Below, one piece after another: positions 1 through 12,479 of a DNA stretch of 12,479 bases. A program made the translations under genes and the position numbers. The notes under the pieces were generated by a model, which searched no databases, was not told the origin of the DNA, and saw only the letters and a program-made list of their open reading frames with translations. The stretch's first letter is position 1. Every line of letters starts with the position of its first letter. The DNA comes from Polyrhizophydium stewartii. Its lineage: Eukaryota; Chytridiomycota; Chytridiomycetes; Rhizophydiales. The stretch lies in the NCBI GenBank assembly GCA_027604665.1, contig JADGIZ010000515.1, positions 1 to 12,479 of the forward strand, written 5' to 3'.

Positions 1-99
1 TGTCGCGATACGCCTGGATGCGCGGGTCCGTGCAAGCGGTGATGAGATGTCCGACCGGCGAGAACGCGCCGAGCGGCAAAGACCGGCAGCGTGCGCGTC
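1..99 (-). CDS. Possible WD40-repeat protein, internal exon fragment (runs off left edge)
   Basis: Read on the minus strand, the frame ending in GAFSPVGHLITACTDPRIQA resembles a WD40 blade (pattern FSPxGxxLxTaxxDxxIxxY). The frame is open from position 99 to the window edge. A stop codon lies just upstream in this frame, overlapping a possible acceptor (CTTCCTGAG) that ends at 100, so the segment would be an exon starting in phase 1. There is no ATG in the segment. A possible first exon is at 412-331: it starts with ATG, ends in phase 1 and is followed by a GTGAGC donor, but joining the two would put the tRNA gene inside the intron. Only about 32 residues are visible, so the WD40 assignment is a motif impression and the gene cannot be named. 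Confidence 0.33.
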
Positions 100-121
100 C
101 TCAGGAAGCAAGGTGGTTGCG

Positions 122-131
122 AAAACGAAAA
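122..131 (-). terminator. RNA polymerase III T-run terminator of tRNA-Thr
   Basis: Directly after the tRNA discriminator base the minus strand reads TTTTCGTTTT, that is two T4 runs two bases apart. T4 or longer runs are the standard Pol III termination signal. The second run probably acts as a backup. Confidence 0.85.
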
Positions 132-204
132 TGCCTCCTGAGAGATTTGAACTCTCGACCTCTTGCTTACTAGGCAAGCGCTGCTGCCACTGAGCTAAGA
201 AGGC
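132..204 (-). tRNA. tRNA-Thr, anticodon AGU
   Basis: The minus strand folds as a complete 73-nt cloverleaf. The acceptor arm GCCTTCT pairs with AGGAGGC, followed by discriminator A. The D arm is GCTC/CAGC with one C-C mismatch. The anticodon arm CTTGC-CTAGTAA-GCAAG gives anticodon AGU (A34 normally becomes inosine), decoding ACN threonine codons. The variable loop is 5 nt and the T arm is GAGAG-TTCAAAT-CTCTC. There is no intron and CCA is not encoded, as usual for nuclear tRNA genes. The internal A box (TAGCTCAGTGG) and B box (GTTCAAAT core) for RNA polymerase III are present. Confidence 0.96.
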
Positions 205-585
205 ACGCTGATCGAAAAATCGTGGTACACTACAATCCTGCGGCACACAAGCCTGAAATCTGCGACCCGTCTCGCCAGGTGTTGGAAAACAAGGCGACGA
301 TGGCTGCCTCCCGTGGCCCGCGCTGCTCACCCCGCACGCCGAATGCATGCATGTGCGCATGATAGAGATCCACCAACACTCGGCGTCCGGCAAGCGCATC
401 CCAGCGAGCCATCCGAGGTGTGCGATGCCCGTTGCCTGGCTGAAGCGGCCGGATTCTGAGCTTCGCCGGCTGGATGCTTGCTGCCGCCGCCACTGCCGCC
501 GCACGACCAGGGCTGGCTCGGCCGCCTGCGCTAGTCTTACTTAAAAGGCTCGAGTCCAAAAATACTCGTCGCATGCTTCATTTGG
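205..585. other. Region between protease gene 3' end and tRNA: 3' UTR, possible first exon
   Basis: These 381 bp lie downstream of the Nma111 stop and upstream of the tRNA, both on the minus strand. They should contain the Nma111 3' UTR, but no AATAAA is visible on the minus strand. A minus-strand open frame (574-230) shows no recognisable family. Within it, ATG at 412 followed by a GTGAGC donor at 330 could be a first exon of the WD40-like gene at the left edge; this is speculative. Confidence 0.4.
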
Positions 586-3500
586 CTATCCGCTCGTGAT
601 AACATTTGTACGCCAGCCTGTCTCTGAGGACTCATCACGGACCATCTCAGATATGGGCCAGTAGTGGCGCAGCACCTTGACGCTCAGGACCCACGGCACC
701 AAGTCAAAGCTCATAGTCTTGACTCGCACGTACGTGTTGTCGGGCAAGTCCTTGACCACCTCGACAAACTCGCGAAGTGTCGGGGTTGGCTTTCCATTGA
801 CATGAGTGATCCACTGCGTTGTTGTGATGCCGTACACGTACGCGGGCGAGCCCTTGGCGCGGGTTGAGACGTAAACCCGCGACGGCAGCGTGTTGGACTG
901 CTGCATCACGGCGCGATGCGGCTCATGCAGCACGGCACCGGCCCACATCACAAGATGCTTGGTTGTGTCGCCATCCATCTCGTCGGTTGGCACCGAGACA
1001 TGCATCTCGACCTTGTTGCGAAGAATCACCATATCAATGGACTCGCCCCAGTCTTCGCGCACATCGAGCTCGGCCACGTGCGTTACGACTCGGCCCTGAA
1101 CTGCCAGGACAATGTCAAGGTCGTGCAGCACCGTCGAGGTCTTTGAGTACGTCTCCACTTTCTTGACCATGAACAGCTCGCGCCGTCTTAGATTCGCCTC
1201 CTCGATGCGGCTGACCCACTCGTCCGTGACGCCCATGTTGCGAGACTGCGATATTTGGATCGTGACAAACTCTGCGGCGAGGCCCACGAGCCGCGGCTTC
1301 ACGCCTGCGGCGAGCTTGGGCAGGATAGTGTCGACCACAAACCGCACGTCGACGCCAATGTGGTACTCGTTGTCGCGACCTGCCTGGGTGCGCTCTCCAA
1401 GAAAACTGAGCCACAGGCCCTGTACGCGGCCCTCGGCATCGGCCAGCACGCCCGACGAGCACTGGTGTGCGAGAGGCGTGTCCAGATTGATCGAGTCTGG
1501 AGTATTGCGCACGCACGTCAGCACTAGGAATCAAGCCGCGTGCTGCGCCTGCGCAAGCCCACCAAAGTTGACAGCGCGGAATCGCGGCGTTGCGTTGATG
1601 GGGATCGTGATGGGGCTGACATCCGTGACCGTCGTCTCGATGCAGATCGGGTGCTGGTTGTGGTTGAGTGCAACCAGAGTTACGCGGTGGCCCTGCGCGA
1701 GCCGCGTTGGGCTGATTGGTGCGCTGCGGACCGGCGTCGTGCCAATGAGCTTGGGATCGTACGACACGACCGCAATGTTCTGCGTCGGATGCAGAAACTC
1801 GACCTTGCCAGGAATGATAATCGAGTCCGCAAACGTGAGCGTCACATCGCCCAAGTTGAACGGTACGATCGTGCGGCCGACAACAACAAGGCCGCGCTCC
1901 GCGTCGAGGATCAGTCCTGCACCTTGTTTCTAGATGGCGAATGTGTGAGCGTCACGACGGTTGATGGGCAGCGGTGCGAGAGCACAGCACCCACCCGAGT
2001 CTTTGGAAATCCTTCGATGCGGCACGGCATGTCCATCGAGACTTTGACCATCGACTCGAAAAGGTACTTTGCTGGCCCGAGACTCTCATCGAGCTTGGTG
2101 AACGTTGCGTTTCTCGGCTCGATCGGCTTGGGCGGGAGGGCTTCGCCCAGATTGGTGTAGTCCCACAGGCCCGTCTTGTCGTTGCGCCTTGCAAGGCGGA
2201 ACGGGCTCCAGTGCCGCTCGACGTTAATGACACAAACCGACTTGGTATGCACATCTGAGATGCTATAGTACGTGACTGGCACGCGCGAGCGATCGGGGAT
2301 GCTCTTGAATACGTCGATAAAGGAGTCCAGGTCTGGCGTCGGAATACCGTCGACGCTGGAAATGATCCAGCCGTGATCGGTGCCGCTCTCGAGACGTAAC
2401 ATGCCGGCCGAGTCGGCCACATACACGCCTTGCACGGGCACGCAATACTGCTTCGCAAGTTGGTAGGATAAGCTGTTGACCTTGGCGCCACCAATCTCGA
2501 CGTAGCAGTTTGGCGTGCTAAGCATGCAGGCCGTCAGAACGCTAAAACATGGACTTCTGCAGGCCAAGGCCACTCACATGGAGTGCAGATCTTGGACGAC
2601 AACATTAAATTCAAGCTCTTCGCCACCGCGTTCGACCTTGAACTTGATTGTCTCGCCGACGCTGTTTGCGTAGTCACGTCAGCGCAAACGACAAACAAAC
2701 CAAAACTGAGACGAAAACATACCTGCTGTCGAGGATGTTCTCCAGCGGCACAAACTTGGTGATGAGCTTGTTGTTGATGCTCACGAGCACGTCGCCTTCT
2801 TCAATGAGATTGTGTGCCGGGCCTTTGGGAACGACAACTTCGGCGACGAGCATGCCAATCTCGGTCGGCTCTTGGCGGCGCACGGACGCCTCGGTCTCGT
2901 CGCGGAGGCCTAGGCGCCGAACCTCGTCAAAAGGCCGATGTCTGCGCAAAGCACCTGCCAGTTAGTCACGCTGTTTCTCACTGTCGAACTCGGTGCGCTC
3001 AGACTAACAGGAACTGCACCTGCACGGTGCCGCGCGGGACATCTTGGCCTTTCCGAATATACTCGAGCGCGCGCTTGACGCCTGCGGGCAATAGCATGAT
3101 GAGACACTGCAAGGCACGATAGAGCTTGTTCGCGTTTGTGCAGAGCCACAAACTCACGGTCAAGTGGGAAGAAAAAGTCGGTCGCAGCCTGTAGTGATTG
3201 GCGGCGGCGGCGGGGGGAGGTCAGCTCGGTGGCGCTGGATGTCGAGTCTGAAAGCAGCTGCGCAGACCTTGGTGTGGCCGCCAGCTTGAAGGCCAACGGC
3301 CTTTCCTTCGATATTCAGCACCGGGGACCCCGAAGAGCCTCCGGATGTGCTCGATGCCGCTTGCAGGTAGAATCTAAGATCGATCGCAACGATGAGTAAG
3401 CGTTTCGCAAGTACCGACAGATCATGCGCTTCAGGCGGACGCATACGTATTGAAATCATTGTACTGTCGTCATTGAGCCAAGAGACGAGTCAGCGACAAT

Positions 3501-4635
3501 CGACACAAACCCACGCACAGCATCGCCTCGAGCAAACTCCCACCGTCATTTCTCCGTATACGGGAGCGTTGCGATCAAGGCGCGAGATGGAGCCTGCGAG
3601 AATGCTGAGTTTCTCGCCAGCGTCGTTGCTGCCACAAGTGGGTTAGTCGAGCCGACTACACAAGGTCGCGGCCGTGCGGAGGCCTGCTCACCCGACCACG
3701 CGGATCTCGAGGCCAACCTGCGCAAGCGCCGGCGCAAGCTCGACCTCCTTGACCTTGATGTACCGGATCTTGGATGGATCGAATCGCAGGAAGCTGCGCG
3801 ATGTGTGCGGCGGGTCAGGGGGCGCTCATCGCCGAGACAACACAGACGCGATCGGCGCTTCGACATCGGCGGCGAACGCACCCAAAGTCGTGGACCTGGC
3901 GGGAGTGCGACGACGGCGACGGCGACGGCGGCAGCTCAGGGTCAGAGCCCCGTCGGGTAGAGCGCGGAGCTGTGCGCAGTCACTCACGGGATCGCGATAC
4001 ACCGGGAACACATCGACCTCCTCGTGGTCGTGCCAGATGGCTTCGCCCACAAACGGGCCTGCGCAAGCGACTGCATCCACATCTGTCAGCGGCAAGCTGC
4101 GCCTCGCGCACCATGGGAGGCGCCTCCAGCAGGAGCAAGGCAGCAAGGCAGAGCATAAGGGACAGGGATCACGTCCGGTTCCCAGAAGGCACCCGTGCGC
4201 CTCGGCGAACCGAAGGAGGGCGAACGCACCATGACGGTTGGTCAGGATCAGGCCCTGTTTGGCATCGACGACAAAGCCCGTTGCCTCGGAGGTGTCGGCG
4301 CCCTCGGTGTCAAAGGCCGCAACTTGCGAGAAGCGGATGCTGACGATGGCGGGCAGTGCCGCGGCGATGGTTGCCTGCCACTCGGACTGGTGTGCCGCAC
4401 CGGACGTGCCGTCGGCGACGCTCGCCTGCTGGCTGGCCGCCGGCGGCGGCGTATCCAGCGACCCGCGGCCGCCGAGCGCTGCCGCGCGGACGACGGTATC
4501 GGCGACCGACGTGGCGAGCGACGAGTCGGCGTCCATGTCGACGGCGCCCACGTCGGCGCCCGGCACCGAGCCCTGCCGGCTGTCGGCGTCGTGATCACGA
4601 GCCGTTCGTTGTCGTTTCGACCTTGTCTGCGGCAT
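586..4635 (-). CDS. NMA111: Nma111/Pro-Deg-type nuclear HtrA serine protease, 14 exons
   Basis: Exons on the minus strand: 4635-4230, 4070-3988, 3895-3882, 3793-3692, 3628-3544, 3463-3447, 3373-3268, 3188-3158, 3081-3009, 2941-2723, 2661-2578, 2517-1991, 1922-1563, 1496-586. They total 3018 nt, about 1005 aa, normal for this fungal family. All junctions are in phase and restore conserved family stretches. Yeast Nma111 is a nuclear HtrA-like protease linked to stress-induced cell death. The first lobe (about residues 85-290) keeps the triad: His135 in TNRHV, Asp166 in VHDFG, Ser250 in GGSSGSP. PDZ-type regions follow (about 310-405 and 407-520). A second trypsin-like lobe (about 583-760) has lost its His and Asp (Thr600, Asn631), as expected of the degenerate repeat; a further PDZ-like region ends the protein. 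The N-terminus is basic (RSKRQRTAR), a plausible nuclear signal. ATG 4635 has A at -3. Least certain joins: the 1990-1923 intron (GTGCTG donor, non-C AAG acceptor) and the GTCTGC donor at 3267. Confidence 0.96.
3447..3463 (-). other. NMA111: 17-nt microexon of NMA111 (YNDFNT segment)
   Basis: On the minus strand CGACAG|...|GTATGC brackets 17 bases that encode Y-N-D-F-N and two bases of Thr. Joined to ATTCTACCTG from 3373 it reads YNDFNTFYLQ, the conserved stretch before the catalytic-serine loop. The flanking introns are 80 and 73 nt. The upstream join yields E-M-T-Y where the family often has E-G-Y. Confidence 0.88.
3882..3895 (-). other. NMA111: 14-nt microexon of NMA111 carrying the catalytic Asp
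   Basis: On the minus strand GCCAG|GTCCACGACTTTGG|GTGCGT gives an acceptor, 14 exonic bases and a donor. It encodes V-H-D-F plus two bases of Gly and joins exactly between ...YRDP (ending at 3988) and FLRFDP (from 3793). This restores the family string DPVHDFGFLRFDP. The flanking introns are 92 and 88 nt. At 14 nt it is not a multiple of three, so skipping it would shift the frame and remove the catalytic Asp166. Confidence 0.92.
3908..3932. repeat. Imperfect CGACGG repeat inside NMA111 intron 2
   Basis: The plus strand repeats CGACGG/CGG units (cgacgacggcgacggcgacg...), which is pyrimidine-rich GTCGCC on the transcribed sense strand. It ends 13 nt before the acceptor of the 14-nt microexon, so it may act as the pyrimidine-rich tract. 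It is otherwise simple-sequence repeat with no sign of a mobile element. Confidence 0.6.
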
Positions 4636-4820
4636 CTTTGGGAAAGCTCAGCCGTGGCGCTCGGGCGGCACAAGGACGGCCCCTTCGCCTACCCGGCCGA
4701 CGCTGGCCGCGCGCCCTTGTGGGAAGGGCGTGGGGCCCTCTGCCCCAGCAAAGGCGACCGCCCGCCCGCAGCCCGATCTGCGCGCTGCAGGCTTGTCGCA
4801 CCTGCCCTCGTGCCGACAAA
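4636..4820. promoter_or_regulatory. Divergent (bidirectional) promoter region between NMA111 and RSPH14-like gene
   Basis: These 185 bp separate the start codons of two divergently transcribed genes and must hold both 5' UTRs and core promoters unless upstream noncoding exons exist. The region is very GC-rich, with GGGCG/GGGCGTGG-type GC-box-like strings around 4720-4740 and no evident TATA box. The small inverted repeat CCCTT-GTGGG-AAGGG occurs near 4715. No transcription start can be fixed from sequence alone. Confidence 0.6.
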
Positions 4821-6568
4821 ATGGACACGGCCATCGAGACCTCCAAACCCGTGACGAATCTGGACCCGATCGAGGCGGCGGTCGAGGCCAGCATGGCGCA
4901 GGGGCTCAAGCTGCAGAGCCACCCGTCGCTCGCAGTCCTCACGACAAAGGAGCCGCGCACGAGCGTCGGGATGCCGGCCGACTCGAGGGAGGCGGCTGCG
5001 CTGCTCTCGTCGGTGCTGCCGCGCGACGTGGATCCAACAAAGAGCCATCTGGCGTACGGCCGCCAAGCCATACCCAAGCTGGTGCGCCATTGCAGACGGA
5101 CGTCATGGGCTCGTCGTATCTGCTCTCGCCTGAATCCGAGTGCCCCTGCCCCGATGGGCCGGCTGCGCCTCTGACGCCTCGTTCCGCGGGCAGATTGACC
5201 AGCTCGACGAGAACAAACTCTTTCCACGCCAGCGGGCGATTGTGTTCTTGGCCGACCTCTTCCACAGCCCGGAAAACGTATCTCAAGGCATCAGCGAAGG
5301 AATAGTCCCGCAGCTTGTTTCGTATCTCGGGTCCGAAGATCTCACCTGCCGCCAAAAGGCGACCGAGGCGCTTGACACAATCGCCAGCCATGCCATCGGC
5401 CGGAACGACATTATACAGAGGCGAGTCCTCAAGCCGCTGTCGGGACTCGTAAGTTTTTTGAGACGATAAATGGGTTTTGTCTGGGGCTGACCCGTGTCGG
5501 CTCTTTGGCGGCGCAGTTTGGCGACCCCGACCACCTTGTGAGGAAGCACGTCTTTGACACGTTCGCCAAGACAACAACGCAGCGCGAAGGTGTGTAGCGC
5601 AACGGAGGCGCGGTAACAGAGATGAAGCAGCATACAGAGTGCAGCTGGAGCTTATGAAATGGCGATTTTGGCCCTCTTGTGGGCCCAGGCGTCGCAGACG
5701 TCCTCGAGTTTGGGCTCTTTGTGCCAATCATCGAGCGTCTCACGACAGAGCGCATGGAGATCCAGGTGCCAATGCTCGAGACGTGCTACAACTGCATCAG
5801 ACTTGGAAAGCCCCCCGCAATGCCCGACATGGCTCTCGGGTGTGAGGCCATGCAGATATTTACGGATATTGCGCGGCGCAGCCTCGTCTCTGAGGTCAAG
5901 GTCGCCGCTTGCCGGTGCATCATGATGCTAAGGTTGGCCGGCAGGCGATTGCACCCAACTTTTCAGCGAACAAAAGTGCGATCTGATCTGACTCTTTGAT
6001 GGGCATCTAAGCTTTTTCCACCAGGGAAAGCGGCTGGCAACGGAAGGCGAGACAGTGCTTGTGCTCATTGCGCTCCTGAGCGACCGAAAGGCAGATGTCC
6101 GAGCGGCAGCTGCCGGCGCACTGATGAGGCAAGCAGAGCTTTTAATCATCGGTTGCGAGGAGCTTGCTGACATTATTTATATTCGCTGCGGCTGCAAGTA
6201 TCACGATCGACTGCGACGCCAAGCGCATCATGGTCCGCGAGAATGCCCTGACGGCTCTGACCGATCTGCTTTCAGACTCGCACGAGCTTGTGCAACTTAA
6301 CGTGATCAAGGTTGGCGGCTTCCCTAAGTGCATGCAAAGTGATGCCCACCAAGCTGACGACTTTGCAGACAATCACCAACTGCGCCGAGGATTACCGCGG
6401 GCGGTTCCAGCTGCACCAGTGTATTCGCAAGGCAAGTGAGTCGCGATGGGCGGATTCTGGGCCAGACCGGCTGACGCAGCGCAGCTGGACGGGCTCGCCA
6501 AGAGTGTCAACGCACATGTGGCCGAGGCGGCTCGGCAGGCGATTGCGGTCATCAGCTGGCGGCCGTGA
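4821..6568 (+). CDS. RSPH14: Radial spoke head protein 14-like armadillo-repeat protein, 8 exons
   Basis: Exons: 4821-5081, 5194-5448, 5517-5589, 5689-5932, 6012-6128, 6199-6310, 6369-6431, 6485-6568, about 402 aa. RSPH14 (RTDR1) is an armadillo-repeat component of axonemal radial spokes in motile cilia and flagella. Matches I recognise are the family entry string DVDPTKSHLAYGRQA (from about residue 69), successive helical ARM-type repeats (for example SRQKA/CRQKATEALDTIASHAIGR and DRKADVRAAAAGALM), and a C-terminus ending in VISWRP. Spliced segments align without gaps to my recollection of the animal protein across introns 4-6. An N-terminal extension of about 55 residues before DPTK is unlike the short animal N-terminus. 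ATG 4821 (ACAAAATGG) has A at -3 and G at +4. Intron 5 (6129-6198) appears to be GC-AG, and the last intron is ambiguous. The stop TGA lies 45 bp before the next gene. Confidence 0.9.
6129..6198 (+). other. RSPH14: GC-AG intron in RSPH14-like gene
   Basis: ATGAG|GCAAGC...GGCTGCAAG|TATC gives an in-phase join (phase 2) reading GALM-S-ITIDCDAK, the length expected from the family. The only nearby GT donor (GTTGCG at about 6152) leaves a phase incompatible with this acceptor. A branch-like GCTGAC lies about 30 nt before the acceptor. Confidence 0.75.
6432..6484 (+). other. RSPH14: Last RSPH14-like intron, two possible boundaries
   Basis: Two in-frame solutions exist. A GC-AG intron runs from AAG|GCAAGT at 6432 to CGCAG|CTGGAC at 6484 (53 nt, reading IRK-LDG). 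A GT-AG intron runs from GTGAGT at 6436 to ACGCAG at 6479 (44 nt, reading IRKATQLDG). The second has the stronger donor but would be the shortest intron in the window and leaves almost no branch-to-acceptor spacing. Confidence 0.6.
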
Positions 6569-6613
6569 GCACCCAAGCGGCCTGGGACTCGAAATGAAGT
6601 TTGCCCGCCAGAA

Positions 6614-8792
6614 ATGAGCGGCGCTGCGGCACACACACCAGGCGCGGCACAGGGCGACGGCGCGGGCGAGCTGCGCGAGACCGCCGCGACGCCCGCCGTG
6701 TGCGCCGAGTGCGGGCGGCCGGCGCTGTTCATGTGCTCGCTGTGCGAGCCGGGGCCGGCCGCCCGTGTATACTGCTCGGCCGAGTGCCAGCGAGCCGACT
6801 GGCCCCGCCACCGCAGCGACTGCCAGGGCGCCCGACGCCTCGCCGCCGAGCGTGCTGCCTCCCGCGCGGCGGCAGCCGCTGCGGCCACCGCAGAAGCAGC
6901 CGCCGACGGCCCGCGTGCAGAGGCCGCTGCTGGCGCAGACGCGCATGCCCTCCACCCGCAGGACGACGACGGCGACGGGCGCCGGTTCCGGGGCGGTGCG
7001 TTCTTGCTGTGGCCGCCGCCTCCTTGCTGCCAGCCAGCCCGCGATGCCGCCGCTGCTGTGCCGCCCGGCTGCGCACCGCCTGCCCGCGCCACGGACCGGC
7101 TGACTGCTGCCAACAACGGTTCGCGCACTCGCAGACGGAGAGCCATCGGAGGAGGAGCGCATCCAGGACATGCGCTTCTACATGGCGCAGATCTACATCA
7201 TCCTCAAGCCGGTCATGCTCTGCATTGCACTCTCTGTGCTCTGGGTCAAACTCTCGCACCCGCTCGACTCGTACTTTGACACAGGGTGCGTTTCTGCGGT
7301 GCCACGGCTGCTGCGCTGCGGTGTGCTCCTTCAAATGCGCTGACGGACGGCGCACCGGACCCTGAGCGCAGTGTGCCTGTGGCCGTGTCGGCGCCGTCGT
7401 CGTCGGTCGGACAGGTACTTGGCACGACGGGAAACTCGCAAAACGACACCAACTCGCTGCTCTCGGCCCTGCTCATCTTGGGCCAGATTGTCGTCGCGAC
7501 GTTCATCATCGCATGCCTGTTCAGATACGGCAAAATCAAGGTGTGCTGCCGCTCTTTGTCCCAGTCTCGCTGCCGCCTCTGCTCACTTTTGCCTGCGCTG
7601 GCCCGCTATCGCAGATCATCATCGGCATCTTTGTCTTTGTCGTCATGCTGCTGCTCGGCTTCTTCGGATACACGCTCGGCCTGACGCTGCTGATTGTTGC
7701 AAACGCTGCTCTGGACTGGATCTCGTTTGCATTCTTCACCTGGAACCTGGTTGCCGTCGGCCTGGCCGTCATCTTTTGGAAGGGCCCGCTCATTGTGCAG
7801 CAGGGATACTTGGTTGTCATGAGCAGCATGATGGCCTTCTCTCTGTCGGCGCAGCCCGATCTGGTCACCTGGATTCTGCTCGCTCTGCTTGCAATCTGGG
7901 ACTTGATTGCCGTGCTCTGCCCGTTTGGCCCCCTGCGCATGCTCCTGGAAAGCTCGCAGCAGCAGGGCCAGGAGATCCCGGCCGCGCTGCTCTACAGCGG
8001 TGGGTGTTGCGGCCTTTTCTTGATCTGCGCTCAACGTGCGGCGGCGCCAGCCTGTTGACTCGCCGCATCCTGTAGCAATGGTCATGATGGCGACACCAGG
8101 CGACCCGCCTTCGTCCCGCAGACAGTCTGCCGACGCCCAGCCAAGCATGCTGCTCGCCGTCGACAGCACACATGGCCACAGCGACACAGAAGGCGGATAC
8201 GTCAGCAGCAACCGCTCGGACTTGCAGCTCGGGTCGTCATACTTGGCACCTGCGGATCAACTCGAGCATAGGCCTCTGCGCCGCAGCTCAGATCGCGGCG
8301 ACTTTGAGCTGCAGCCCGTTGCGCAAGGCAGCCAGGAGCGCTCCGCCCAAGAGCGCGAAGACAACCTGCAACTCGACGCCGAGGAGGCAGAGGAGAGCGG
8401 TCTGAAGCTCGGCCTGGGCGACTTTGTGTTCTACAGTGTTCTTGTTGGCCGTGCATGTGAGTTTGACCCACTGCAGCGTCGCCGCACACACCACACTGCT
8501 GACACATTGTCTTTGCGCAGCTCTCTTTGACTGGATCACGACCGTGTCCACCATCATCGCTGTGACCGCGGGCTTATGCGCCACCATCTACATGCTGGCC
8601 GTCTACCGCCGACCGCTGCCCGCGTTGCCTTTTTCGATTGCCTTTGGCATCTTGTTCTACCTGGTCGCAGCGACCACGCTCACGCCATTTATCGACGGCC
8701 TGATCGTGCGCCCGACCATCGTCGCGCCGCCAGCTGTCGGCTCAAACCTCTGGGTCGGCAAGAATATGGGCGGAGGCATGATTTACTTGTAA
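6614..8792 (+). CDS. Presenilin with N-terminal MYND zinc finger (predicted fusion), 6 exons
   Basis: Exons: 6614-6995, 7135-7285, 7372-7540, 7615-7999, 8076-8456, 8521-8792, 579 aa. Presenilin is the catalytic, nine-TM aspartyl protease of gamma-secretase, cleaving membrane proteins within the bilayer. The hallmarks are intact: catalytic Asp330 in WDLIAVLCPFGPLRMLLE (TM6), Asp478 in KLGLGDFVFYSVLVG (TM7, GxGD) and PALP at 523-526. TM1 is about 147-167. A polar loop of about 110 residues lies between TM6 and TM7, where presenilins are normally cleaved to mature. Residues 30-70 form a MYND finger (Cys30, 33, 41, 44, 54, 58, His66, Cys70, with the YCSAECQRADWPRHRSDC signature), followed by an Ala-rich then acidic linker. 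ATG 6614 starts the MYND frame. The presenilin frame has a stop at 7101 and no earlier ATG than 7170 (Met140), so splicing 6996-7134 is what joins the halves. Presenilin identity is near certain; the fusion is strongly suggested but unproven. AATAAA follows at 8828. Confidence 0.85.
6996..7134 (+). other. Intron joining MYND exon to presenilin exon
   Basis: The donor is GGGGCG|GTGCGT, the same hexamer used by the next intron of this gene and by two NMA111 introns. The acceptor is CACTCGCAG|ACGG, with a branch-like GGCTGAC at about 7098-7104. The exons join phase 1 to phase 1 (G+AC, Asp128). At 139 nt it is longer than most introns in the window. Without removal, the MYND frame continues to a stop at 7277-7279 through sequence with no family resemblance. 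Confidence 0.7.
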
Positions 8793-8886
8793 TCCCACTG
8801 GAAACCGACCGCAGCCCAGCCTGCGGCCAATAAATACGTTCACTGGAACATCATGCAAGTTGAGCTGCAAGCAGACCGCCAGTCCT
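8793..8886. promoter_or_regulatory. Convergent intergenic region with presenilin polyadenylation signal
   Basis: The stops of two convergent genes are separated by 94 bp. A canonical AATAAA lies at 8828-8833 on the plus strand, 36 bp after the presenilin stop. No AATAAA is seen on the minus strand for the opposing gene. The two 3' UTRs probably abut or overlap. Confidence 0.75.
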
Positions 8887-11800
8887 TCATTTTTTGTTCC
8901 ACGCCTTGGTGATTAGAGCAAGCATGCGCTCAACCGCAACCGTCTCGCTCGGCGTCAGACTGTCGACCGAGGATGTTTTGGCTTGCCACGACACCCCGAG
9001 ATCCTTGACGTGCTGGAGCGCCTTTGAGAGTTCTTCGCGCACCTCCTCGCGCGCGCCGAGTCCAACAATCATCTCGCCGTCGTGTGTTGCGTTGGTCTTT
9101 GGTGTACCGGGGTTGGACATTGCCTTGTTGAGCCTTGAGAAGATTTTCTCGACCACATCGGCCGGGAGCGTCATTGGGTTGAGCGCATCGATCCCCACTG
9201 CAATCAACGCCACAGACCGGCGGTCCGGCTGCAGCTTGTTGGCCACCATGGCCTCGACCAAGGTGTGCATGTCCGCAATCTGCGGAGCACGCGCAACCAG
9301 AGCAAGAACGCTGTTGCACATTGCAAGTGTCGCAATGTGAGGGGACGCATGCCGACCAATATGCCGCCTCGCCTCCTGCGGCGACATGCTCAAATCTGTG
9401 TAAAGCTGCCGCAGCCCAAAGATGCTCATGATCATGGTGTGCACGGCAGCCTCCGCCTCTTGCCAGGTCATGAGCCCATCCAGCGCAAACCGCTCGTGCA
9501 TGGCAACAAGGTCGAGTGCGTGCCGTTCCCACTGGACGTGGACGTCGGCGCTTTTCTGGAGTGCGCGCACGTCAGGCGTCATGATGATCAAGCCGCACCG
9601 ATCCAGCAAGCTCCGCGCGAGATCATTGTCGGTTGCATCAACCAGCGAAGCGCGCGACAGGCTCTGCAGGATCGCCGACACGACCCTGAGACAATGTCGC
9701 GGATAGTCTCTTGAGCCGTCCAAGAGAATTTCGGTTGCTGCTTCGACGTGCTGCAACGTCGGCTTGTGCAGTAGCAGATCCAGGATCGCGTCCATCGTTG
9801 GGGCCTCCAAATCGCGCAGGCACAATGTCGCATCACGGACAAGCGTCTTGATGGTGTCGACGTCGGCTGTGTTGAAACGCTCCGGGTAAGACCCGTCCGT
9901 GCCCGACTTGGACTCAATCAGCTCGGCCAGCCTCGTGACGGCGACGGCGCGCTTCTGTTTCTCTTCTTCCTCGAGCGCCTCGAGTTTCTCGGCATCGTCA
10001 ACAAAGTCGATGCGCTTCCAGATTTCGATGCGCCGCGCGAGCAATGGCAGCGACCGCGCGTTGGCCTCGTCACGGAGAATCGACGCGCACTGTTGGCGGA
10101 ACTCGGCCGGCGCACGCAGCACAAACTGAGACAGCAGCGCATCGCCCGTCTCCTCTGTGGGCAACAGTGCAATCGTCTGCTGCAGCAGCTCAGTGATAAG
10201 CAGACGCTGCGCCTGTGCCTGCTTGGCGCGATCGTCGTCGTTCGCGGCTGTCTCGCCGGGTTTGAGGCGAGAGACTTGTGTGGCGAGCGCGGCAACGACT
10301 TCACAGGTGACAACCGGCGTGCTGGCGTTTGCGAGGAATCTGATAAAATAGTGCATTTGCGCTTTGAGCATCGCCGGTGAGTCTGGGAATCCGTTGGTCT
10401 TGAGCAGAAATACGATCTCAGGAAGATAGCACTCGTCGCGCGATGGTGCCAGGGAGTGGATGACACTCGATGCGGCCATGAAGATGGACGGCATCCAGTT
10501 GGTTCCATGCAGTCGGCGCGCCAGCGCACGCGCATCATCCTCACGCCCAGAGGCAAGAAGGCTGCTGATAAACTTGACTAGCCCTCTGATGTTCACGGAG
10601 GAGGGGCGACGCGACCATCCCTGGCCATTTGGCGCCATCGGCAATGGGTTCGCATGCTCTGCAATGTAGTCGGAATGCTCTGTCGTGCTGAGCTGCTCCC
10701 AAGAGATATTGTTTTTGCGCAGGCCGTCGAGGATGCCGATGCGTGCCTTGCGGTTGTTCTTCCAGAGCATCTGGGCTTCCGACGATTTAAGCGGGATTTT
10801 GGTGCAAAGAAGTGCAAGTCGCATGAGTATGGCCGCCTCAGGCATCATCTTGAGCCGCACGAGCGCCTCGGCAGCGCGGGTCATCTTCTTGATGACGGAC
10901 GAAAGGTTCTCGGATGAGTCATATCGGGTTGCATTTTGGACCGCCTCGATTGCCTCAATGTCGCCGAGCTGCGTTGGCGATGGCGGCGGCTTGTGCTGGA
11001 TGAGCGTTGTGTCGCCGATTATCTCAAAGTCGTGCGAAAAGTCGGTCTCAAGATCGAGGGCTTTACGGGCGTCGAACATGACCGCATGGACTATTGCAGC
11101 CACTGCCACGCGGTCCATGACGAGAAACGACTGTCTTGTGTCGATCAAAGTCAGCCAGATGTCCCTGACCTGGTCGACGTAGCCGTGTTTGTGGAAAAGA
11201 GCGGCCATCCGAGCTTTCGAGCGAGCCGGAAGATGGCTGACTCGCGCGTATCCGTTCCGCTCCGCTTCGGACAGGCCCGTGCGACTGGCGAGCTCCTCGA
11301 GCAGCTCGATTCCAATCTCGGCATCCTTCTTGGTGCCCGAGGCGCTCAACTCGGCGACAAGCGACTCGAACGTGAAGGCGTTGACAGGGATGCCGTAATC
11401 ATCCTCTGCACCGCCGAAGCACAGACGGAACGCCTCGGAAGCCTTGTCCTCGCGGAGCAGCAGGCGGATGCGTGCAGCAAGGGCCGCCTGGCGGATGTGA
11501 AGCTCCCAAGTCCGCTGTGCCAAGGGTGTCAGAAGCCGGCTGCTGGCGCGGCAGGCAAGGGATATGCGGCTCACGTCGTTCAGAATCGATTCGACAGAAG
11601 ACGGCGGGAGCATCAGCATGGCGCCGACGAGAGCGTGGTGGGCGTCGCCTCGGATGACGGGCCTCCAAGTGTCTCTTTTTTTCGTGGCCTTGCCGGTCTT
11701 GGACGGCCGAGCAGCATCGACATCGGCGGCTGTGGTGGTCTGCGGCAGACGCATGGGCGGTGCCCCTAAACCAAGCTGGAGCGACGGAGCAGCGTGGTTC

Positions 11801-11937
11801 TGGCGCGCGACGAGTCGCACGCAGGCGCCGAGGGGTCGCAGGCGCGCGGTTCTGGCGACCGCGACAGCGAGTCGGAGCATGTCGGCGAGTCGGGCAAGAT
11901 CACGCTTCATTCCGGCACGAGACCAAAGGTGCCGCAT
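8887..11937 (-). CDS. PPR-like helical-repeat protein, probably mitochondrial; intronless
   Basis: One uninterrupted reading frame gives about 1016 aa from ATG 11937. The frame is open upstream to a GTG at 12006, but that stretch overlaps the end of the neighbouring dehydrogenase-like gene in another frame, so the first ATG after that gene's stop is the better start. From it the protein begins MRHLWSRAGMKRDLARLADM followed by more Arg/Ala/Leu-rich sequence lacking acidic residues, typical of a mitochondrial targeting peptide. The body is almost wholly helical. The clearest repeat, about residues 870-908 (SVLALVARAPQIADMHTLVE then AMVANKLQPD), fits the pentatricopeptide pattern; an earlier helical pair contains ELLEELASRTGLSEAE. 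A charged, possibly coiled-coil segment (KLEALEEEEKQKR) is encoded near 9960-9990. PPR proteins bind organellar RNA; that role here is inference. I cannot name the gene, and a TPR-like scaffold is an alternative. ATG 11910 is another possible start. Confidence 0.78.
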   Translation of the reverse strand: MRHLWSRAGMKRDLARLADMLRLAVAVARTARLRPLGACVRLVARQNHAAPSLQLGLGAPPMRLPQTTTAADVDAARPSKTGKATKKRDTWRPVIRGDAHHALVGAMLMLPPSSVESILNDVSRISLACRASSRLLTPLAQRTWELHIRQAALAARIRLLLREDKASEAFRLCFGGAEDDYGIPVNAFTFESLVAELSASGTKKDAEIGIELLEELASRTGLSEAERNGYARVSHLPARSKARMAALFHKHGYVDQVRDIWLTLIDTRQSFLVMDRVAVAAIVHAVMFDARKALDLETDFSHDFEIIGDTTLIQHKPPPSPTQLGDIEAIEAVQNATRYDSSENLSSVIKKMTRAAEALVRLKMMPEAAILMRLALLCTKIPLKSSEAQMLWKNNRKARIGILDGLRKNNISWEQLSTTEHSDYIAEHANPLPMAPNGQGWSRRPSSVNIRGLVKFISSLLASGREDDARALARRLHGTNWMPSIFMAASSVIHSLAPSRDECYLPEIVFLLKTNGFPDSPAMLKAQMHYFIRFLANASTPVVTCEVVAALATQVSRLKPGETAANDDDRAKQAQAQRLLITELLQQTIALLPTEETGDALLSQFVLRAPAEFRQQCASILRDEANARSLPLLARRIEIWKRIDFVDDAEKLEALEEEEKQKRAVAVTRLAELIESKSGTDGSYPERFNTADVDTIKTLVRDATLCLRDLEAPTMDAILDLLLHKPTLQHVEAATEILLDGSRDYPRHCLRVVSAILQSLSRASLVDATDNDLARSLLDRCGLIIMTPDVRALQKSADVHVQWERHALDLVAMHERFALDGLMTWQEAEAAVHTMIMSIFGLRQLYTDLSMSPQEARRHIGRHASPHIATLAMCNSVLALVARAPQIADMHTLVEAMVANKLQPDRRSVALIAVGIDALNPMTLPADVVEKIFSRLNKAMSNPGTPKTNATHDGEMIVGLGAREEVREELSKALQHVKDLGVSWQAKTSSVDSLTPSETVAVERMLALITKAWNKK

Positions 11938-11966
11938 GCTGCGTGTCGCATCGACCCGCTGCCGCT

Positions 11967-12479
11967 TCACAGCTTCTGCTTCCACTCGGCGCTGTTGATC
12001 AGCCACTTGATGACCTTGGCACCGCGGTGGCCGTAAATCGGGTTGTGCTCGAGCGACCGCTTCTCGGCGAGCTCGATGGCAATCTGCGCCGCCCGGTCAG
12101 CCCATGCTCACGCCTGCATCCGCACACGCCGCGCCAGAGCCTCACGCTGCCGCACGGCATGCGATCGGTGCGCAACCCACCTCCTGCGTGGTCTTGCCCG
12201 TCGACGCCGCCTGCTGCAGCACGGCCGTCGACAGGTTGAAGATGGCATTGTCCCACGTCGTGCCGAGATGCTCCTCGAGCCTCGGGTCGTCGTCGATGAT
12301 GCCCATGTGCTGCGCCACGCGTCAGCCAACACCGCAGCCGGCGGTCGGGTCGGCGCGCTGCGCCAGGCGGCCCACCTCGTCGCAGCAGTTGACGATGCCC
12401 TATTGGCGTGCACGCCGGCCGAGCTGCATCAGCGATTGCCGGCAACACCCACACGCCAAGATGCAGCGCGCTCACCATG
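11967..12479 (-). CDS. Glu/Leu/Phe/Val dehydrogenase-family protein, C-terminal part (runs off right edge)
   Basis: Exons on the minus strand: (12479)-12476, 12399-12376, 12309-12181, 12083-11967 with stop TGA. Introns are 76, 66 and 97 nt with donors GTGAGC, GTGGGC and GTGGGT. The spliced product reads MGIVNCCDE-HMGIIDDDPRLEEHLGTTW... and ends ...AIELAEKRSLEHNPIYGHRG... then KWLINSAEWKQKL. The M-GIVNC string at the nucleotide-binding-domain end, a helical tail with a D-P-x-HLG-x-W pattern and the terminal NPIYGHRG motif resemble, from memory, the C-terminus of NAD(P)-dependent amino-acid dehydrogenases of the leucine/glutamate type, which deaminate an amino acid to its 2-oxo acid. The catalytic domain lies outside the window, so substrate and cofactor cannot be judged. 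The exon 12399-12376 is only 24 nt. The stop lies 29 bp upstream of the next gene's start. Confidence 0.55.

What the first reader, a model, noticed from the sequence alone, without database searches (positions are those of the whole stretch)
6614..8792. Predicted MYND zinc finger-presenilin fusion
The sequence shows a complete MYND ligand set (C30-x2-C33, C41-x2-C44, C54-x3-C58, H66-x3-C70) in one exon. A consensus donor (GTGCGT) and acceptor (CGCAG) join it in phase to a presenilin with both catalytic Asp and PALP. Presenilin N-termini face the cytosol, so the finger would sit on the cytosolic side of the protease, where MYND domains usually recruit proline-rich peptide motifs. That suggests a built-in adaptor for substrate selection or for handling released intracellular domains. 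I know of no described presenilin with this architecture, but I cannot search.
Basis: partly seen in the sequence, partly recalled or inferred. Interest (0 to 1): 0.85.

Follow-up and report, generated by a model that had tools for sequence, protein, structure and literature searches.

The report
Zinc-finger presenilin of early-branching fungi
This chytrid gene joins a MYND zinc finger to a presenilin, the cutting subunit linked to Alzheimer's disease in humans, and the same joined protein turns up in many early-branching fungi and in one of their aphelid relatives, so the finger looks like an old built-in part of the enzyme rather than an oddity of one species.

Summary
A six-exon model, 6614-8792, gives 579 aa with a complete MYND finger (C30 C33 C41 C44 C54 C58 H66 C70; Pfam 38.6 bits) and a full presenilin (350.7 bits; Asp330, Asp478, PALP523). 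The fusion is not unique. Of 148 relatives listed by three capped protein searches, 86 carry the full finger pattern, 10 part of it, 52 none. Carriers span Chytridiomycota, Blastocladiomycota, Zoopagomycota, Mucoromycotina, Mortierellomycota, Glomeromycotina and the aphelid Amoeboaphelidium protococcarum. One weakly supported group around Monoblepharidomycota and Neocallimastigomycota lacks it, 12 of 12. So this looks like an old architecture. The deposited protein of this species (P0001) hides the finger because its model merges the upstream armadillo gene, whose last intron has GC-AG borders. Gamma-secretase in early fungi is in print (PMC10406608, passages); seven paper searches, two with capped listings, showed nothing on the finger. 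Best mechanism: a cytosolic peptide-docking finger tethered to the presenilin N-terminus. Ligand unknown; no transcript or binding data were available.

The parts
6614..6995 (+). Exon 1 of the presenilin gene: start codon, N-extension (aa 1-29), MYND finger, Ala-rich and acidic linker (aa 71-127)
   Evidence: ATG lies 45 nt after the stop codon of the upstream gene
6701..6823 (+). MYND zinc finger (aa 30-70), C4-C2HC ligand set
   Evidence: Six-frame zf-MYND match, 43.8 bits, at these bases; 38.6 bits in the spliced protein
6996..7134 (+). Intron 1 (GTGCGT...CGCAG), joining the finger exon to the presenilin exon, phase 1
   Evidence: same junction in deposited P0001; protein similarity on both sides
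7135..7285 (+). Exon 2: juxtamembrane segment and TM1; alternative start Met140 at 7170
7372..7540 (+). Exon 3: luminal loop 1 and TM2
7615..7999 (+). Exon 4: TM3-TM6 with catalytic Asp330 (codon 7900-7902, WDLIAVL)
8076..8456 (+). Exon 5: large cytosolic loop and GLGD with catalytic Asp478 (codon 8420-8422)
   Evidence: P0001 lacks part of this exon
8521..8792 (+). Exon 6: TM8-TM9, PALP motif (aa 523-526), stop
   Evidence: AATAAA at 8829-8834 read
4821..6568 (+). Upstream neighbour, not part of the presenilin: armadillo-repeat gene (RSPH14-like by recall), last intron 6432-6484 with GC-AG borders, stop 6566-6568

Best explanation
The gene encodes a presenilin whose cytosolic N-terminus carries a MYND zinc finger; it is the only presenilin that two searches of the assembly reported. 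The fusion most likely arose before aphelids and fungi split, was kept in most early-branching fungal groups, and was lost in a group around Monoblepharidomycota and Neocallimastigomycota. Shown here: the two domains in one recurrent protein, the finger's zinc ligands and peptide-contact residues, and stronger conservation of the finger than of its linker. Inferred: the finger is a peptide-docking site held on the cytosolic face next to TM1, recruiting a partner with a short Pro/Leu motif, and so concentrating a co-factor, a substrate tail or a released intracellular domain at gamma-secretase. My estimate is about 0.6 that it is a protein-docking site at all, and no more than 0.2 for any particular partner.
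Against: No transcript, protein or binding data. 52 of 148 relatives show no finger; many look like truncated models, but I could not check their genomes. One of two Amoeboaphelidium proteins lacks the finger (P0145). Gln, Trp and Ser are, by recall, common in MYND fingers generally, so they show competence, not binding. The window protein holds none of five MYND-ligand motifs tried, and these are not clearly tied to the finger in relatives: PxLxP 30 of 87 with full finger, 9 of 52 without; PxLE 2 of 87 against 5 of 52. Third-position GC gives no frame signal in exon 1. APH-1 and PEN-2 were not found in the genome (the tool says this does not show absence). Foldseek E-values for the MYND chains are weak (0.28 to 1.4).
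Confidence: 0.6

Rival explanations
1. Chaperone docking: the finger binds an endoplasmic-reticulum-anchored co-chaperone such as FKBP8 with HSP90 and helps presenilin or its substrates fold, rather than choosing substrates.
For: Direct binding of FKBP8's N-terminus to MYND domains of PHD2 and ANKMY2 is cited, and ZMYND10 point mutants in and just before its MYND domain lose FKBP8 (PMC6044906, passages). The genome holds an FKBP gene followed by what reads by eye as TPR sequence.
Against: The open frame that ends that gene shows no membrane anchor, and I saw no PxLE motif in its fragments (by eye); FKBP8 orthology and TPR content untested; no binding data.
Confidence: 0.2
2. The finger is a structural or stability element (trafficking, protection of the N-terminus, complex assembly) without a peptide ligand.
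For: Zinc ligands kept in 86 of 148 relatives; in the one relative modelled, which has a short linker, the finger leads into TM1 through helices at pLDDT 83-90.
Against: The peptide-contact residues are kept. The stretch between finger and TM1 differs a lot: about 16 residues in P0012 (finger to 42, helix from 58), about 72 in the window (70 to 142), which argues against one rigid structural role.
Confidence: 0.25
3. The finger and the presenilin are separate transcripts in this species; presenilin starts at Met140 (7170).
For: Met140 is available; several relatives have models that start just before TM1, and some may be real short isoforms.
Against: Unspliced, the finger frame would end at 7279 inside the TM1 exon, in another frame; single fused proteins in most groups; similarity across the junction. 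Mortierella alpina has models with (P0067, P0074, P0089, P0090, P0133) and without (P0097) the finger, which points to model error.
Confidence: 0.07
4. The real protein is the deposited armadillo-presenilin chimera (P0001), with no finger.
For: It is the deposited protein of this species; B. salamandrivorans has armadillo+MYND+presenilin models (P0002, P0003).
Against: P0001 skips 6436-6875, deleting the armadillo gene's last exon and stop; a GC-AG intron at 6432-6484 gives LDGLAKSVNAHVAEAARQAIAVISWRP-stop, similar to the armadillo part of the Batrachochytrium model. B. dendrobatidis P0004 is MYND-presenilin alone.
Confidence: 0.05

Closest known systems
Gamma-secretase presenilin (family A22A; human PSEN1)
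   Different: N-terminal MYND finger, which human presenilins lack (recalled); WD instead of YD around the first Asp
MYND fingers of ETO (CBFA2T1) and DEAF-1
   Different: Fused to a membrane protease instead of a nuclear factor; ligand unknown. The top row was PRDM9, through small repeated C2H2 pieces only
Gamma-secretase of early-diverging fungi (PMC10406608, passages)
   Different: 'MYND' does not occur in that main text
ZMYND10, PHD2, ANKMY2 (MYND adaptors)
   Same: Cytoplasmic proteins whose MYND domains are linked to membrane-anchored FKBP8 (PMC6044906, passages)
   Different: Not intramembrane proteases; no kinship outside the finger is expected (not tested)

Membership tests
Presenilin (A22A) | Pfam PF01080 over most of the profile | tested here: met
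   350.7 bits, profile 2-408 of 408
Presenilin (A22A) | Two catalytic Asp (YD and GxGD motifs) and PALP | tested here: met
   Asp330 (in WD rather than YD), Asp478 in GLGD, PALP at 523
Presenilin (A22A) | Presenilin membrane fold | tested here: met
Presenilin (A22A) | Proteolytic activity and endoproteolysis | not testable with these tools
   Needs an assay
Gamma-secretase complex | Nicastrin present | tested here: met
   C76:16022-16774, 116.2 bits
Gamma-secretase complex | APH-1 and PEN-2 present | tested here: inconclusive
   No match exon by exon, also at E<=10; no control genome rang
MYND zinc finger (PF01753) | C4-C2HC ligand set and Pfam score over cut-off | tested here: met
   All eight ligands; 38.6 bits against 22.7
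MYND zinc finger (PF01753) | MYND fold | tested here: met
MYND zinc finger (PF01753) | Zinc and peptide binding | not testable with these tools
   Contact residues kept, binding not measured

The most novel reading that the evidence does not exclude
The ancestral gamma-secretase of the fungal lineage was an intramembrane protease with a built-in peptide-reading zinc finger: the finger selects or retains specific cytosolic tails or released intracellular domains, a regulatory input on presenilin that animals and plants lack or supply in trans.
Probability: 0.3. Interest if true: 0.8.

Novelty: new variant of a known kind. Interest (0 to 1): 0.55.

Why it matters
Presenilin's cytosolic N-terminus has little assigned function (recalled). 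A finger kept there in many early fungi and an aphelid offers a natural handle on how gamma-secretase meets cytosolic partners, in organisms where I know of no described substrates. It may also mark the fungal plus aphelid clade, and it shows that a deposited protein of this species hides the domain through a gene-merging error.

Tried and rejected
Intramolecular ligand: I looked for PxLxP, PPPLI/PPLIP-like, PxLE, PPL and MPPL motifs. The window protein has none. With full finger against without: 30/87 and 9/52, 3/87 and 0/52, 2/87 and 5/52, 8/87 and 3/52, 0/87 and 1/52 (whole proteins, not corrected for kinship or length). Dropped.

Loop motif: a DQLExRPL stretch in the TM6-TM7 loop is shared by the window, P0002 and P0004, with related stretches in P0005 and P0022, but by eye not by most of the 39 proteins that I printed of 144 held (the pattern failed for P0006). 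Not pursued.

FKBP8 partner: one FKBP gene with TPR-like sequence by eye, no clear FKBP8 ortholog; inconclusive.

APH-1/PEN-2: four searches without match; absence not shown.

Coding signal: third-position GC marks the frame in exons 2, 3, 4 and 6, but not in exon 1 and hardly in exon 5.

Non-fungal origin: the three protein searches score only the candidates sharing most words and list the best 120 of 211, 440 and 414 hits, so a finger-bearing presenilin outside fungi and aphelids is not excluded. A look for BS69 contact residues (PMC4742278) returned no passage.

Counting caveats: the 148 are cluster representatives, not independent species; 18 of 148 are unnamed; I set the group labels from record names and memory. 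Four short or odd models (P0129, P0135, P0147, P0148) were dropped before the tree, which held 144 relatives and the window. Of 87 finger sequences (86 relatives plus window) a stricter pattern first parsed 64; a looser one parsed 87. The alignment for the model and the Pfam scan used 68 of 148 relatives, chosen for spread, some of them fingerless.

Full report
What is there. The window is contig C514 of a 12.86-Mb, 690-contig assembly. I take the organism to be Polyrhizophydium stewartii, a chytrid, because deposited protein P0001 (754 aa) matches the model at 100% identity in a local alignment covering 48% of it. A six-exon gene at 6614-8792 gives 579 aa. Pfam finds zf-MYND at aa 30-70 (38.6 bits) and Presenilin at aa 142-547 (350.7 bits), both over their cut-offs. 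The eight zinc ligands, Asp330, Asp478 and PALP523 are in place. Presenilin matches in the assembly lie only in this gene (best candidates only). The window's finger scores best of four zf-MYND matches reported there.

Is the join real? 264 combinations of nearby GT and AG sites stay open, so an open frame alone proves little, and third-position GC does not mark the frame of exon 1. Three other lines support the join. The finger frame, if not spliced, would run into the TM1 exon in another frame and stop at 7279. B. dendrobatidis protein P0004 is similar on both sides of the junction. Deposited P0001 uses the same junction. No transcript data were available.

Why the deposited record lacks the finger. 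P0001 starts in the upstream armadillo gene and jumps from the donor at 6436 to 6876, inside exon 1, past the finger; it also lacks part of exon 5. The armadillo gene closes naturally if it uses a GC-AG intron at 6432-6484 (GCAAGT...GCGCAG, 53 nt): this gives a C-terminus similar to the armadillo part of the B. salamandrivorans model and a stop at 6566-6568. A predictor that ignores GC donors would make the observed error; that is my inference. The two genes are 45 nt apart, and the same neighbours appear merged in two B. salamandrivorans models (P0002, P0003).

How widespread. Three protein searches listed 148 distinct relatives (best 120 of 211, 440 and 414 hits). By a ligand pattern, 86 have the full finger, 10 a partial one, 52 none. 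Full/partial/none by group: Chytridiomycota 22/3/12 of 37; Blastocladiomycota 4/1/2 of 7; Mucoromycotina 19/3/6 of 28; Calcarisporiella 1/0/0 of 1; Mortierellomycota 27/0/13 of 40; Glomeromycotina 6/0/2 of 8; Zoopagomycota 2/1/1 of 4; Aphelida 1/0/1 of 2; Monoblepharidomycota 0/0/2 of 2; Neocallimastigomycota (named) 0/0/1 of 1; unnamed 4/2/12 of 18. With curated profiles, 55 of 68 aligned members match zf-MYND and 68 of 68 Presenilin.

What the fingerless ones mean. Several begin just before TM1, and close kin carry the finger: in Mortierella alpina P0067, P0074, P0089, P0090 and P0133 have it and P0097 does not; Geranomyces michiganensis P0016 has it and two G. variabilis models do not. Many are therefore probably truncated models. 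One group looks like true loss: 12 proteins around Monoblepharidomycota and Neocallimastigomycota, of which 3 are named and 9 placed there only by the tree. None of the 12 has the finger, and 10 have more than 100 residues before TM1. They group together with support of only 0.48; an unnamed protein with a partial finger (P0144) sits beside them. The aphelid A. occidentale lacks the finger (P0145) while A. protococcarum has it (P0130).

Tree. The tree of the membrane part (389 columns, 145 sequences) was re-rooted on the two aphelid proteins, which did not come out as sisters. It recovers Blastocladiomycota (1.0), most Chytridiomycota (0.98), Glomeromycotina (0.998) and Mortierellomycota (0.77); Zoopagomycota are unresolved (0.12), and the fungal clade as a whole has 0.51 (labels may shift on re-rooting). 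This fits vertical inheritance, weakly at the base.

Constraint on the finger. Against B. dendrobatidis the finger is 26/41 identical, the linker 13/57, the large loop 37/105 and TM1-6 171/219; against the aphelid, finger 22/38 and linker 7/24 of aligned positions. The Gln one residue and the Trp five residues after the sixth Cys ligand are kept in 87 of 87; Ser/Thr in the second CxxC in 77 of 87. By the alignment to DEAF-1 chain 4a24 and its numbering these are Gln529, Trp533 and Thr516, which the passages that I saw of PMC3555993 name as important for corepressor peptide binding. By recall they are common in MYND fingers, so they show competence, not a ligand.

Mechanism. Presenilin N-termini are cytosolic (established knowledge), so the finger should sit on the cytosolic face near TM1. 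I judge peptide docking most likely. A membrane co-chaperone such as FKBP8 is a named candidate because other MYND domains bind it (PMC6044906, passages), but my look at the genome's FKBPs was inconclusive. None of five known MYND ligand motifs occurs in the window protein.

Known or new. [quoted passage not shown] 'MYND' does not occur in its main text. Searches of presenilin, nicastrin or gamma-secretase with MYND, zf-MYND, chytrid, Mucoromycota, early-diverging fungi, Rhizopus and fungal listed no paper on the fusion. Of these, one search listed 20 of 6,626 papers and 10 of 1,356; subscription journals are mostly missing; for the papers listed, apart from passages of PMC10406608, I saw title and start of abstract only. 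The architecture is visible in public Pfam annotation and in record names such as 'MYND-type domain-containing protein'. So, in the literature that I could search, it is a new variant of a known kind; the sequences themselves were already public.

Noticed in passing
window 6432-6484: GC-AG intron at the end of the upstream armadillo (RSPH14-like by recall) gene; missing it would explain the merged deposited model P0001 that hides the MYND finger.
   Followed up: yes
window 6566-6614: Only 45 nt between the armadillo stop and the presenilin start on the same strand; the same two genes appear merged in B. salamandrivorans models, so the tandem may be conserved among relatives and could be read through.
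   Followed up: partly
relatives P0009, P0010, P0015, P0017, P0018, P0032, P0041, P0047, P0051, P0086, P0093, P0094, P0105, P0107, P0110: A GRGNxAQ[VI]IN-like motif in the linker between finger and TM1, in 15 of 144 proteins from Spizellomycetales to Glomeromycotina and Syncephalis; not in the window protein. Four of the 15 lack the finger in their models but keep the motif. Function unknown.
   Followed up: partly
window 586-4647, minus strand: Multi-exon gene; two of its frames match the PDZ-like domain PF12812, resembling the fungal Nma111/HtrA-like protease (name recalled).
   Followed up: partly
window 8890-12096, minus strand: Single open frame of 1069 aa with no Pfam match at E<=0.001; looks PPR-like by eye.
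   Followed up: no
window 131-205, minus strand: tRNA-Thr gene, anticodon AGT.
   Followed up: no
P0024 and P0054: Cladochytrium replicatum has two very close presenilin models on different contigs, one with and one without the finger.
   Followed up: no
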